From assembly GCA_018398765.1 (NCBI GenBank), contig JAHBMJ010000461.1, positions 1-46,596 of the forward strand: a stretch of 46,596 nucleotides of DNA. The letters are read 5' to 3'. A program made the translations under genes and the position numbers. Below are positions 30,052 through 40,887 of this stretch, in pieces. Source of the DNA: Chromera velia (taxonomy: Eukaryota > Sar > Chromeraceae). A model generated the notes under the pieces. That model was given only the letters and a program-made list of their open reading frames with translations, did no database searches and was not told the DNA's origin. Each line of letters starts with the position of its first letter. Position 1 is the stretch's first letter.

Positions 30052-32382
30052 ATGGGTCCCAAGAAGGACGCTCCCCATGGGTGCGTCGCGATCAAGGGTA
30101 TGGAGGCAAAGACCGTGGGCGTCTTCGGCCTCACAGACGATGCGGACATCATCGAGTAGGTACGGCAATATGCAGATGCTGTGGCCATTCTTGGAGACTC
30201 GGACAAGTGGTGCGGCGGGCTCACCCTCACCAATAGGAACAAGGTGGGGGTCAACGTTAAGCACTCCGTCGCAAGGACCGAGGTGGAAGTGCTGGAGAAG
30301 GTGGTAGAACGGGTGCCCCATCTCAGCTTGGAAGTTTCTGAGCAGCTCCAAATTTTCCACAGGCATGTTGTGGACTCCGTTTCTCCACCCGATGCGGAGT
30401 AGATGAAGAGATATCTGCAGCGGACCGATGTCTTGAGAATGGGCAAGGCGAGGATCATGGAAATCAGGGAGCTTCTCTTACGTCAAGAGAAGGAAAGAAT
30501 CTCTAGTCCCCAGTTGAAGGCTCTGAATGAACAGATCCTCTGCCTGCAGACTCTGAAGGAACCCTCCTCCCTCTCCCTGTCTCGCCCTGTTGTGTTGTCT
30601 TCAGGTGGAGAGCTCTATGGGGGAGCTTCAACAGAGACGAAGGTGAAGATGGAGGAGGAGACAGGAGCAATACCAGACACCTCCCGTCAGATGTCCGTCC
30701 CCATGTCCAGTGAGCAGCGTCCAGCCTCTGATGAGCGGGACCGCCGTAGCAGTAGCAGCAGCAGTTCCAGTAGGGGGGTGCAGGTGGTCGGTGTACGACC
30801 TGACACCACCCTGCTGGAGACAAAAAGGAAGCAGTACGAGGACCTCGTGGCCCAGATATCAGGTCTGGACGCCGCACGGGGTGCCGACAAGCTCCGAATT
30901 CTGGAGATCCAGAAGGAAAAGACTGAAGTGCTGAGTGGTATGCTCAGGAGGGACAATTTCCCTGAGGGGTCTGAAGGGAAGGAGGCGTACGCATCAGAGC
31001 TGGCATCCTGGGCTGAGAAGAAAGAGGTCTTCGACGCTGAGAAGGCTGACAGGGATACGCTGGTAGCGACCCTGCATGGTCATATTGACCAGCTGGCATC
31101 TGATGGGTTTGCTCTGAACGAGCAGACCAACAAACTCCACAAGGAAATAGACGTGCTCTCTCCTCCTCTCCAGGCCAAGGGTGTCACTGGGGGTGCTGCT
31201 AAAGGTCACCTGCCTTCGGTATTCCATATGACCCCCCTGACGGGTGGGGGGATGTATCCTGCTGTGTCTCCCCCTGAACCTGCGACGGTGTCTGTAGGTG
31301 GGGGGGTGCGTACTGGTGATGTCGGGGCTCCGGGTGCTCCTGACATCTTCTCTTTCCTGGGAGTTAGGGAGTCAAGTGGGACTCAGGGGAGGCCCAAGTG
31401 TGACCCTGAGGATCCCCTCATCGCCTACACCCTGGAGGAGATCTTGACATCGGTCTTGAGGACCTTTGTGGAGATGCGAGATAAGGTCGTGGCGATGATC
31501 TTTGCGCACTTTTTCAAGACGATCCAGTACTTGACTTCGGCCTTCATCCTGGAGTACGAGAGGATTGCCTACAAGCCCTATCGGTTTGGTACCTACACAG
31601 AGCTGCTGGCGCATCACAAGCGTCTCCTGAACTACTTGGTTGAGGAGAACATCGTCCACGAGCTTGGCGTGAAGTACAGGCTCGGGCTCCTGACGGCACA
31701 CCTGCCAAACGACCTCATCATGAGGTGGTAGGAGAGGCAGAACCCGGTGGACCTCACCAGCGAAGTGGAGATCATTAAGGAGATCCACGGCATCGCTGCC
31801 CAGGCGGAGACCTTCAACAAGTCTCTCGGGGATGCCTGGGACCGGGGCCTGGTTAAGGGAGCTCTCGTCGAGGACTTGAAGAGAGAGTGGGAACAGAAGG
31901 CGGCAACCTTCGGGGTTAGGAACTCGGGGGGTGCCTCGCAGGGGGGTATCATCCCGAAGGTTCCTTTTTTGGCGTTCGCGGGGCCTGGAGGAGTCCCGCA
32001 GAGGAAGTCCTCTTCCAAGGTAAAGGGGGGGAAACCCTCAGGAGGAAAGACCCCTGACTCTGGCGGGAAGGGCAGGGGCAACTCTGATCGCGGGAGGCAG
32101 GGCAGTGCAGGAGGGGGTTTCGGCAAGAGGGATGGCAGGGGGAGCTCCAATCGGGGGCGCTCTCCTAGGTCCAATTCCTCTGCTCCCTCCAGCAGATACA
32201 ATGACAAGGGGGTGGAAGGAAAGGACCGTCCTCCCACTCAGGCCGTTGTTAACCCCAGGGGCCCCAACAGGAACCCCGTTCTCGATCGATATGGTGTCCG
32301 ACACCGGGACGGCTCCGGGTCGGATGTATTTATCGGGACGATGGCGGGACTTGGAGAAACTCCCATCACACCCGGTCAGTGA
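30052..32382 (+). pseudogene. E4 Gag
   Basis: The N-terminal part (30052-30402) is followed by a charged, Ser-rich, partly coiled-coil stretch to about 31200. A helical capsid-like region (about 31390-31920, including ERIAYKPYRFGTYTELLAHH and VKYRLGLLTAHLPNDLIMRW) comes next, then a Gly/Ser/Arg-rich basic tail to TGA 32380. Assignment as Gag rests on position after the PBS, on composition and on the zinc knuckles just downstream. Three stops interrupt it before the end. Confidence 0.7.
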
Positions 32383-38040: not shown

Positions 38041-40887
38041 GGAACTCCCATCCAAGAGAGGAGAGTTTTGGGTCTAGCTGCGCTGGAGTTCTCCTCGTAC
38101 GATCGTCAGCTGATGAAGGGGGCAGTTGTCCAGAGGGATAACAGGAGAAAGCTCGTGGCCCTCCATTCAAAGGCGTGTAGGAGCTACGGATGGGCAGACC
38201 TCGCACCTGATCTGTCGGTAAGGGACCCCCTCGCTTTCAAGGTCAAGGAAATCAGGGATGGGAGAGTGAAGCGGTCGTCCATCAAGCACGTGTTCGACAT
38301 TCGGGGGGGGAGAGTCCCCGAAGAGGCCGTGCGCATGATTGACGACCCCGTCCAGCTCTGTGAAGTCGGAGTTTGGAAACTACCGGAGGAAGAAAGGGTG
38401 GGAGGTGCAAAGGGCACTACAGACGCGGTTTCTGCAGGTCCCTCCGCATCGTCGTCTTCCTCTGCTATGCCTTCCTCTTCTGTTGTCCCTGCTGTGCCTC
38501 CTGTGGGGGAGTCACGTGTTGTCCCCGAGGCTGCTGAGTCTCAACCTGGTGTTCCTTTGAACGCAGGCGGAGAGGAGAGAGCGGAGGATCATGGGGGTCC
38601 TCCTGCTGCCGAGGGGGCATCTGGTGAAGGGAATGAGCTTGGGGGAGTTGAGCCACTGGGCCCTATTGCGGAGAATGTGGAGACGGATGAGGAGCCTCCG
38701 TCTATGGTTGTGTCTACAAATAGGGACGGGTATGTCTCGGAAGTCAGCTTGTCAACGTTTGAGGCAAGTGGCCTGGGCTCCGGGAGCGACAGCAGCTCCT
38801 CGGATGATGAGTGGGGTGTCCTGGGGGGTGGAAAGCTTCCCAGGGCAGGAGAAGGACCTGCTGTGAGGCAGAACCCGCCCAACAAGGAGGTTGAGGAGAT
38901 GAACAAGGTGCATGAGGTTTTACAAGGCCCGCAGTGGGAGCGGTTCAACACCCTCTGTGCGATGGAGGTTTTGAGGGAGGAGCGAGCAAGGAGAGTGCCC
39001 GAAGTGACGGGGAGGAACTGGAATGATGATTTCCGGGAGGAGAGAGGCATTCCGTCGTTCGCTAGGGCGATGGTGTGGGAGAGGGAAGAGGGCAGTCCCA
39101 AACGGGATGGGACGCCCAAGAGCCCCACCAGGAGTAGGTGGTGCGGTCTTCCTCACCTGTTTTACCTTTCATCCAGGAACCCTCGGTTAGGTTTCCTGTT
39201 CACGGGAGCTGCCGTGTACGAAGAGGAGATGAGCCGTTTCAAGAAGGGCTCTACCCAGCTCCCCGCTACAAAGGAGGAGATCGACTCGGGGTCTCACAAG
39301 CTCGCTACCCTGAAGGAGTGGCTGGTGAACATTGTTGGAAATCGGACGTTCGGCAGGAGGGTTAAGAGGAACGAGGTTCGGGCGGTCGTTGGCATGGGCT
39401 GGCGATACACTTGGAAAGAGACGGACGATGGGGGCCGGAAGCCTAAGGCGAGGTTTTTCGCAAAGGGTTTCCTGGATGGCCGACTCATTGACACCTACGT
39501 CGGAACGCCTTCCATTGTGGGGATCAACACCGTCTGCCTTTTCATTGTGTCCACAGGAATGGAGATGGGGGCGGCGGATGTGACCGCTGCCTTCTTGACC
39601 TCCAAGGATCATAACGCTGAGCGGGTCAGCGCGACACTGCCCTCTGTGCTGCCTCGAGTCCCTGAGGTGAACCCCTTCAAGGACATCCCTGACGACAAGT
39701 ACGAGGAGCTGAGGAGGATGGCGGCCGAGTACGAGCCCAGAGGCACGTACTTGGTGGAGATGGGCCTCTACGGACTGCCCTGTGCGGCCCAGCTTTTCGA
39801 CCATAAGTTGGAGGGGGTGTGCAAGGAGTTAGGATTCAAGCGCATGGACACGGCCATCGCAGTCAAGGCTCCCCCTGAGGGAGGGAGAGCCCAAGCCATC
39901 GTGATGAATTAAATAGACGATTTGCTGACTGGAGCCCCTCCGAAGGAGCACAAGGCCCTTCAGGAGACCTTCAACCAGAGGCTGGGCTTTGGGTCTGTGT
40001 GTGTGATTGGGGAAGGATCAGAGAGGAAGTTTTCTGGAGTGGACATCTCCAGAGTCTCCACGGAGGAGATTCACCTCTCCCAGGTCTCGTACATCGAGAA
40101 CACAGACACCGCTCCTCTATGGGAGATTTTGAAGGAGAAGCGTCCAAGTAAACCCTAGAAGGGTTTGGATGGCAAGAGTGCTGAGCCTTCCACCGAGGAA
40201 GAGGTCGACAACCAGTATGAGAAGCCGATCCGTGCTAGAGTCGGGACTCTGCAGTGGGGGGTGAGGATGAATCCGCTCCATGCGGTTTGGGGCCACACGG
40301 TAGTGCAGTCGATATCGAAGCCTTCCAGACGCGTCTTCAAGACGGTCGTGCGAATCATCGAGATGCTGAAGGGGCACCCTGACAAGCGGGTTTTCATGAG
40401 CGTGGGGCTCGTGCCCGTCGTGCACGTGTACTTCGACGCAGCATTCAAGTTCGCGACCTACGCTGCACGGTTGGGTTATGTTGTCAGGATCCTGCACTCG
40501 ATCGAGCTACGAGGGAATCTGCGGTCCCTCCTGGAGAACTGGATCGCGTGAGCCACTAAGAGGGCGGGTAGGAAGGTCGGGTCTTCCACCGCCGGGGAGG
40601 TGCTCGCCTTTGAGTTTCTTCTCAAGAAGCTCTTCGGCATCGTTGCCCTCATTAAGGCAATGTGGGGCCTCAAGAAGGTCCGTGTGATTGTCTACACAGA
40701 CTTTGGCCCCCTCTACGACCAGTTCCGGTCTGGCAAGGCCCAGACCGATGCGACCATGCAGGGCGTTTTGGAGTGGTGCATTCAGGAGATGCGTGTCCTT
40801 GAGGCAGATCTCCAGTGGATTGCACGATCGAGGAATGTGGCGAACGTGATGACCAAGTACGCCCTCCCCGGTGGGGAGATGGCATGA
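38041..40887 (+). pseudogene. E4 Copia-type reverse transcriptase and RNase H
   Basis: About 38068-38400 is a conserved-looking leader, then an acidic Ser-rich linker. RT begins near 39280: WRYTWKETDDGGRKPKARFF matches the Copia RT entry motif. The first catalytic Asp is in ADVTAAFLTSKD (39577); GLYGLPCAAQLFDHKL is the Copia G-L-x-Q-x-P segment; and IDDLLTG at 39913 carries the two catalytic Asp, preceded directly by TAA 39910. RNase H shows Asp at 40434 (VYFDAAF), Glu about 40602 (GEVLAFEFL), Asp about 40699 (YTDFGPL), and the Copia ending WIARSRNVANVMTK (about 40816-40857). Stops at 39910, 40156 and 40549. Confidence 0.88.

What the first reader, a model, noticed from the sequence alone, without database searches (positions are those of the whole stretch)
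30052..40887. A 10.8-kb single-frame gag-pol in a giant Copia-type element
Gag, integrase, RT and RNase H motifs all fall in one frame of about 3,611 codons with 14 stops and no net frameshift. Typical Copia polyproteins are far shorter. The size comes from two unassigned regions of about 500 and 700 codons. This suggests a lineage of oversized Copia elements in this organism.
Basis: partly seen in the sequence, partly recalled or inferred. Interest (0 to 1): 0.75.

Follow-up and report, generated by a model that had tools for sequence, protein, structure and literature searches.

The report
Giant Copia retrotransposon family in Chromera
This is a decayed copy of an unusually long, many-copy Copia-type jumping element from the coral-associated alga Chromera velia, whose single protein-coding frame is about twice the size of its ordinary relatives in the same genome because of extra stretches, at least part of which was kept as protein.

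Summary
Frame 30052-40887 has 3,611 codons with 14 internal stops, against 102 and 148 in the other forward frames. It lies in a 15.2-kb LTR element (LTRs 94% identical) in a genome whose protein hits are all named Chromera velia. The size is ancestral: 39 other scored copies match at 90-95%, regions A and B keep their distance in 27 of 28 contigs matched by both probes, and no window stop is shared by more than 4 copies (4 of 18). Region B shows third-codon-position excess of transversions, region A more weakly, Gag not significantly. Catalytic spacings equal those of an ordinary 6.3-kb Copia, L037, within a few codons; the growth lies before the protease, between protease and integrase, and between integrase and RT. 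A second family (RT 47-49% identical to relative P0030) is also giant and single-frame. A C2H2-like finger motif lies between integrase and RT in three families, though often degraded. RT matches Copia RVT_2 below Pfam's cut-off. Best filed as an oversized variant of Copia; the role of the extra regions is inferred.

The parts
29204..29208 (.). putative target-site duplication, left (AAGGA; right counterpart GGGGA at 44365-44369, two A/G differences)
   Evidence: sequence; tentative
29209..29964 (+). 5' LTR, TGTGAAAGT...ACTTTTCACT
   Evidence: 94% identical to 43613-44366; many 3' LTR copies end at probe base 756
29964..29980 (+). putative primer binding site starting TGGCGCC
   Evidence: position and 10 copies; matching tRNA not found
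30052..40887 (+). single gag-pol frame, 3,611 codons, 14 internal stops in this copy
30052..32380 (+). enlarged Gag part (no Pfam gag match)
   Evidence: position before the zinc knuckle; Pfam negative; third-position test not significant, p 0.16
32536..32577 (+). nucleocapsid-type zinc knuckle CX2CX4HX4C
   Evidence: read from the translation; motif only, no Pfam match
32581..34797 (+). region A: zinc knuckle to integrase HHCC, with protease-like box near 33640
   Evidence: present in copies; third-position excess p 0.038 over 32951-34650; box read by eye
34798..35772 (+). integrase (HHCC then D, D, E), with C-terminal part
   Evidence: motifs; BLASTP to family iii E 1e-9 and 5e-24; gag_pre-integrs only E 0.033
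35773..39228 (+). region B: enlarged integrase-to-RT region
   Evidence: in copies; third-position excess p 1.7e-4, 4.9e-5, 0.057, 3.3e-5 in its four parts
37288..37344 (+). C2H2-like motif CX2CX10HX3H inside region B
   Evidence: similar motif at the corresponding place in three families; all four residues in 13 of 19 copies but second Cys is Tyr in 7 of 11 protein relatives
39229..40155 (+). reverse transcriptase
   Evidence: RVT_2 E 0.0023 in the window piece, 1.4e-6 in relative P0001, under the curated cut-off; alignment A2
40400..40884 (+). RNase H
   Evidence: motif order and spacing as in L037
40888..43612 (+). 2.7-kb tail, probably non-coding, ending in a purine-rich tract GGGAGGGGGTG next to the 3' LTR
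   Evidence: probe 41500-43400 matched all 40 scored places; longest forward open run 144 codons; long antisense run poorly kept in copies
43613..44364 (+). 3' LTR

Best explanation
It is an old, inactivated copy of an autonomous Ty1/copia-type LTR retrotransposon from Chromera velia, belonging to a group of oversized families in that genome. Shown: paired LTRs, one ancestral gag-pol frame of about 3,600 codons, Copia order by motif (Gag, protease, integrase, RT, RNase H), tens of copies of the same architecture, and an integrase-RT region that evolved as protein. Inferred: the element copied itself in the ordinary way (transcription, one giant polyprotein, cleavage by its own protease, reverse transcription in particles, integration). 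The extra integrase-RT region, with its C2H2-like motif, is most likely cleaved off or kept on the integrase as a DNA- or chromatin-binding part that guides integration or nuclear entry (my confidence in that role about 0.3, lowered from 0.35 on recount of the motif). The enlarged Gag and region A would serve packaging of a long RNA.
For: LTR pair 94.2% identical bounding the frame. 14 internal stops against 102 and 148. Each of the 14 stops is shared by 0 to 4 copies out of 6 to 20 covering. Spacing A-B kept in 27 of 28, B-RT in 31 of 31, A-RT in 24 of 27 contigs. Of 10 other contigs with two full LTR hits among the 40 scored places, 5 have 14,369-14,471 bp between LTR starts against 14,404 in the window (my subtraction). 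A 305-residue region-B piece matches 49 other places over at least 275 residues at 77-90% identity. Sites with transversions concentrate at third codon positions in region B (p 1.7e-4, 4.9e-5, 0.057, 3.3e-5), RT-RNase H (0.0033) and more weakly A (0.038); the LTR control shows none (0.25). Catalytic spacings (pattern starts) match L037: HHCC to E 171 against 175, FAKGF to IDD 152 against 151, IDD to RNase H 172 against 172 codons. RVT_2 is the only RT profile matched, E 1.4e-6 for P0001 and 8.4e-6 for P0010. Family iii has the same design. Finger motif in three families; 1 to 5 of 2,000 shuffles give one by chance.
Against: RVT_2 scores stay below Pfam's curated cut-off and no integrase, protease or gag profile reaches threshold. 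L037's 1,568-aa Pol gives no Pfam RT hit and no database hit over residues 930-1560 among 7,993 candidates scored. Codon-position tests for Gag (p 0.16), the zinc-knuckle part (0.31) and integrase (0.063) are not significant. Region B's middle part is not alignable between window family and family iii by BLASTP or hhalign. The finger pattern was chosen after seeing the sequences; its second Cys is Tyr in 7 of 11 protein relatives and 6 of 19 copies lack at least one of the four residues. Both structure predictions failed (mean pLDDT 29.7 and 33.2). No transcript or protein expression evidence was examined.
Confidence: 0.85

Rival explanations
1. The length is an artefact of other elements or host sequence inserted into one ordinary Copia copy.
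For: Other Ty3-type elements lie in the same window, and several copies carry insertions at their own places (C402, C395 and C3818).
Against: Regions A and B are colinear at constant spacing in nearly all contigs compared, stay in the gag-pol frame, and show third-position excess.
Confidence: 0.02
2. Regions A and B are fast-evolving, mostly disordered spacer with no specific function, tolerated because the genome and particle allow it.
For: Ser-, Pro-, Gly- and acid-rich stretches in the translation; no Pfam match; the middle of region B not alignable between families; very low structure confidence; finger residues often changed.
Against: Third-position excess in region B; finger-like motif at the corresponding place in three families; the stretch after it (window 38086-38493) alignable with family iii at E 2e-9 and 7e-6. 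Low pLDDT came from shallow alignments (24 and 12 sequences), so it says little.
Confidence: 0.33
3. The elements are not Copia but a separate integrase-before-RT lineage of Ortervirales restricted to chromerids or alveolates.
For: RVT_2 below cut-off, RT box N-W-I-D-D in relatives instead of the Y-V-D-D that I recall for Copia, only C. velia hits in two protein searches and none in a third.
Against: RVT_2 is the only RT model that matches, with E down to 1.4e-6; domain order and RNase H placement are those of Copia; UniProt labels many of the relatives Ty1/copia-type.
Confidence: 0.1
4. The window frame is really separate gag and pol genes joined by a stop or frameshift, and the single frame is a coincidence of decay.
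For: The ordinary C. velia Copia L037 has its Gag-side open frame (2735-3403) in another frame than its Pol (3499-8202).
Against: No internal stop is shared by a majority of covering copies and the frame is continuous in the window; family iii is likewise single-frame over about 2,550 codons.
Confidence: 0.04

Closest known systems
Ty1/copia retrotransposons (family Pseudoviridae)
   Same: LTRs, gag-PR-IN-RT-RNase H order by motif, one polyprotein frame, purine-rich tract before the 3' LTR.
   Different: 15.2 kb against 4 to >9 kb given by the ICTV profile (PMC8515867, whole text read); about 3,611 codons; RVT_2 under cut-off; RT box N-W-I-D-D in relatives; primer tRNA not identified.
Ordinary-size C. 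velia Copia, L037 (contig C269, 6.3 kb)
   Same: RT 43% and 54% identical over two aligned pieces, 27-39% over the rest; catalytic spacings equal within a few codons; similar protease-like box; N-W-I-D-D RT box shared with P0030, P0010 and P0001.
   Different: No enlarged A and B: protease box to HHCC 160 against 386 codons, integrase E to RT 544 against 1,382; Gag-side open frame in another frame.
Sireviruses (SIRE lineage of plant Copia)
   Same: Copia elements with extra coding capacity in many members.
   Different: Their extra frame lies downstream of pol (PMC6317226, passages read); here the growth is inside gag-pol and the tail has no forward open run above 144 codons.
Burro and Ogre giant Ty3/gypsy elements
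   Same: Giant LTR elements; Burro also packs extra domains into one huge polyprotein (4,873-aa ORF1; PMC6431247, passages read).
   Different: Those are Ty3/gypsy and longer (Ogre 16-25 kb, Burro over 30 kb); the word 'copia' occurs 0 times in the main text of that review.

Membership tests
Ty1/copia (Pseudoviridae) | Internal region between paired LTRs | tested here: met
   LTRs 29209-29964 and 43613-44364, 94%; other copies likewise
Ty1/copia (Pseudoviridae) | Integrase upstream of RT-RNase H in pol | tested here: met
   Motif order HHCC, D-D-E, RT, RNase H with L037-like spacing; motifs read by eye, integrase without a Pfam match above threshold
Ty1/copia (Pseudoviridae) | RT matches the Copia profile RVT_2 above its cut-off | tested here: inconclusive
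   Best 28.5 bits, cut-off 31.6, E 1.4e-6 (P0001); window piece E 0.0023
Ty1/copia (Pseudoviridae) | RT groups with Copia in a tree | not tested
   No outside reference RT was returned by the protein searches
Ty1/copia (Pseudoviridae) | Primer binding site for a host tRNA, usually initiator Met | tested here: inconclusive
   TGGCGCC in 8 of 10 covering copies, one substitution in the other 2; tRNA-end patterns found nothing above control
Ty1/copia (Pseudoviridae) | Polypurine tract before the 3' LTR | tested here: met
   GGGAGGGGGTG directly before 43613, purine-rich with one T
Ty1/copia (Pseudoviridae) | Target-site duplication of about 5 bp (recalled) | tested here: inconclusive
   AAGGA and GGGGA, 3 of 5 identical
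Ty1/copia (Pseudoviridae) | Genome 4 to >9 kb (descriptive) | tested here: not met
   15.2 kb; range from PMC8515867. A description, not a criterion of membership
Sirevirus | Third (env-like) frame downstream of gag-pol | tested here: not met
   No forward open run above 144 codons in 40888-43612 of this copy; the tails of other copies were not read

The most novel reading that the evidence does not exclude
C. velia hosts a deep, so far undescribed branch of Copia in which several families maintain a polyprotein of 3,000 or more codons, with an added zinc-finger-bearing region between integrase and RT that serves as a targeting or nuclear-entry module, comparable in role to the chromodomain of chromoviruses.
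Probability: 0.25. Interest if true: 0.7.

Novelty: new variant of a known kind. Interest (0 to 1): 0.5.

Why it matters
LTR elements above about 10 kb have been labelled giant, and the giant LTR elements in the review passages seen are Ty3/gypsy elements or endogenous retroviruses (PMC6431247). A Copia group whose enlargement is inside the polyprotein, shared by families that differ at about half of their RT residues, with ordinary-size relatives in the same genome, makes it possible to ask directly what the added protein does. It also adds to what is known of transposable elements in chromerids, the photosynthetic relatives of apicomplexan parasites: the genome paper gives about 30 Mb of TEs (PMC4501334, 12 of 23 places shown), and no paper in the library searched joins 'Chromera velia', 'retrotransposon' and 'copia' (one search listed 8 papers joining 'Chromera' and 'retrotransposon', of which I read passages of one).

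Tried and rejected
Nested insertion as the source of length: rejected by colinear copies. Separate gag and pol: rejected by the lack of shared stops. Antisense frame around 42033-42953 as a gene: not supported but not closed. Its 338-codon open run is longer than composition gives (0 of 3,000 first-order simulations reached it), yet only 8 other places match it over at least 275 residues at 75% identity or more, against 49 for an equally long sense piece of region B; no other place matches its whole length without a stop. Primer tRNA: the window pattern found only the window itself, a degenerate tRNA-end pattern gave 7 hits against 11 for the reversed control. Structure of region B (A1, 24 rows) and of the integrase part (A3, 12 rows): mean pLDDT 29.7 and 33.2, so no fold search was run. 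PDB by sequence: none for the RT piece at E up to 1 and none for profile A2 at E up to 10. hhalign of region B against family iii pieces: nothing significant, best about 3% probability. Protein search with L037 Pol: no hit. A paper search for large or giant copia returned nothing to the point (listing only).
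Full report
WHAT WAS CHECKED. The frame 30052-40887 is real: 3,611 codons, 14 internal stops, against 102 and 148 in the other two forward frames. Self-comparison finds a 758-bp direct repeat, 29209-29966 and 43613-44366, 94% identical, enclosing the frame. Many 3' LTR copies elsewhere stop matching at probe base 756, so the LTR probably ends at 29964 and 44364. The element is therefore about 15.2 kb: LTR, a short leader, the frame, a 2.7-kb tail, a purine-rich tract, LTR.

ORGANISM. The window is a whole contig of a 178-Mb genome in 4,040 contigs. All 38 hits of the RT piece and all 30 of a region-B piece carry Chromera velia names; in both searches only about 8,000 candidates sharing most words were scored.

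COPIES. An RT probe found 69 candidates; 40 were scored and all matched, the 39 others at 90-95%. Probes in region A, region B and the tail had 40 places scored each, all matching, the window included. A 305-residue region-B piece matched 64 contigs by my count, 50 of them (window included) over at least 275 residues at 77% identity or more. In contigs found with both DNA probes, A-B spacing is within 300 bp of the window's in 27 of 28, B-RT in 31 of 31, A-RT in 24 of 27. RT-tail spacing agreed in 19 of 33 by the script; 10 of the 14 others are minus-strand contigs offset by the 900-bp difference in probe length, so I count 29 of 33. Of 20 upstream stretches fetched, 6 were cut by contig ends and 7 align unbroken from the LTR to about 38.5 kb. 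Ten other contigs have two full LTR hits: 5 at 14,369-14,471 bp between starts, the rest at 8,011, 15,155, 15,913, 15,929 and 18,160 (my subtraction). So the size belongs to the family.

ONE FRAME. Stops shared with the window, per stop: 1/10, 1/11, 2/14, 2/16, 4/18, 2/18, 0/18, 0/18, 3/18, 0/13, 2/20, 1/7, 0/7, 1/6 covering copies. None is a family feature. All 20 copies examined have stops in the part covered (2 to 20 each), and 19 of 20 show indels not a multiple of three against the window.

CODING CONSTRAINT. Counting sites with at least one transversion by codon position: region B parts 11/8/30 (p 1.7e-4), 23/13/45 (4.9e-5), 11/14/24 (0.057), 13/10/36 (3.3e-5); region A 36/28/50 (0.038); RT-RNase H 8/5/20 (0.0033); integrase 18/26/35 (0.063); Gag 37/25/40 (0.16); zinc-knuckle part 5/9/4 (0.31); LTR control 24/14/18 (0.25). 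Region B clearly evolved as protein; region A probably; Gag is not shown by this test. Copies are transition-rich, so I relied on transversions.

DOMAINS. Pfam gives only sub-threshold matches: RVT_2 E 0.0023 and gag_pre-integrs E 0.033 in window pieces; RVT_2 28.5 bits (cut-off 31.6), E 1.4e-6, in relative P0001. The rest is by motif: zinc knuckle CX2CX4HX4C at 32536-32577, a protease-like box near 33640, HHCC and D-D-E, RT, RNase H.

COMPARISON INSIDE THE GENOME. An RT search with P0030 sorted the relatives: a P0030 family at 80-100%, the window family mostly at 63-71% (window 67%), family iii at 47-49% (7 contigs), and distant ones whose main matches are at 29-37%. Identity of family iii RT to the window itself was not measured. 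L037, a distant one, is a 6.3-kb element with LTRs 97% identical and a stop-free 1,568-codon Pol. With that Pol as query, 10 contigs match over at least 1,400 residues among 30 candidates scored, all but L037's own with stops. Against L037 the window's catalytic spacings are nearly equal (171/175, 152/151, 172/172 codons between pattern starts), while protease box to HHCC is 386 against 160 and integrase E to RT 1,382 against 544. The part before the protease box is 1,196 codons against about 470 in L037 (my estimate).

OTHER GIANT FAMILIES. Family iii copy L041 has 17 stops in one frame over 9 kb against 95 and 164; by part 3/0/4 against 35/15/17 and 69/18/69. It changes frame near 7.9-8.0 kb of the locus; its relative L038 does so elsewhere. 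The integrase-piece start to RT start is 5,426-5,451 bp in 4 of 5 family iii contigs with both, and 5,183 in the fifth (my subtraction); the window value is about 4,570 and L037 about 1,880 (my estimates). Two of the 7 family iii contigs gave no integrase match. The P0030 family (L029 with L040) has matching pieces of A, integrase, B and RT but is broken and interrupted; the copy in L039 shows none upstream.

ZINC FINGER. CX2CX10HX3-4H occurs once in each of four frames examined, at the corresponding place between integrase and RT: window 37288, L041 and L038 (family iii), L040 (P0030 family). Shuffled proteins gave one in 2, 1, 5 and 5 of 2,000. The pattern was chosen after seeing the sequences. 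13 of 19 copies of the window family keep all four residues. In 7 of 11 database relatives covering the site the second Cys is Tyr, which fits decay but also weakens the case.

ANTISENSE RUN IN THE TAIL. A 338-codon antisense open run exceeds what composition gives (0 of 3,000 simulations), but copies keep it poorly: 8 other places over at least 275 residues at 75% identity or more against 49 for the sense control of equal length. I leave it as unexplained.

WHAT IT IS. A decayed member of an oversized Copia group. The life cycle is inferred from the class. A guiding role for region B is a guess from its place beside integrase and from the finger; disordered spacer is the main rival.

KNOWN OR NEW. 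The ICTV profile gives 4 to >9 kb for the family (whole text). A review of giant transposons does not mention copia in its main text (passages). The C. velia genome paper reports about 30 Mb of TEs and methods, with no description of such elements in the 12 of 23 places shown; its supplementary tables were not read. No paper in the searched library holds 'Chromera velia', 'retrotransposon' and 'copia'. A paper on dinoflagellate retrotransposons says Copia elements are the most abundant in Symbiodinium (PMC5890265, passages), so relatives there are worth a search. I do not claim that this is the longest Copia known. On the recount I lowered the guiding-role odds from 0.35 to 0.3 and the novel case from 0.3 to 0.25, and raised the spacer rival from 0.3 to 0.33, because of the finger substitutions.

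Noticed in passing
8093-14296 (+) and 18945-25069 (-): Two Ty3/gypsy elements with short LTRs (319 bp, 95%; 307 bp, 92%), gag and RT; the second also carries an SH3-like and a chromodomain.
   Followed up: partly
42033-42953 (-): Antisense open run of 338 codons in the element's tail, longer than composition predicts but poorly kept in copies.
   Followed up: partly
26007-28899: Direct repeats of 471 bp, 92% identical, 2.4 kb apart, about 310 bp upstream of the giant element; the frame 26525-27664 between has no Pfam match. Possibly a small non-autonomous LTR element.
   Followed up: no
927-2516 and 45301-46134: Host-like coding pieces: EamA transporter with a weak acetyltransferase match, and a GFO/IDH/MocA oxidoreductase.
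   Followed up: no
RT of relatives (A2): The RT catalytic box reads N-W-I-D-D in all six relatives in alignment A2 (P0030, P0027, P0028, P0010, P0001, L037), where I recall Y-V-D-D for Copia.
   Followed up: partly
30052-40884, copies L009-L028: Copies differ mostly by transitions; 33% of 9,353 transitions fall at CpG-type sites though 20% of C/G sites are in CpG, suggesting methylation-linked decay.
   Followed up: partly
L038 2396-3895 and 3894-5387: A 1.5-kb tandem duplication covering part of the integrase inside one family iii copy, 94% identical.
   Followed up: no
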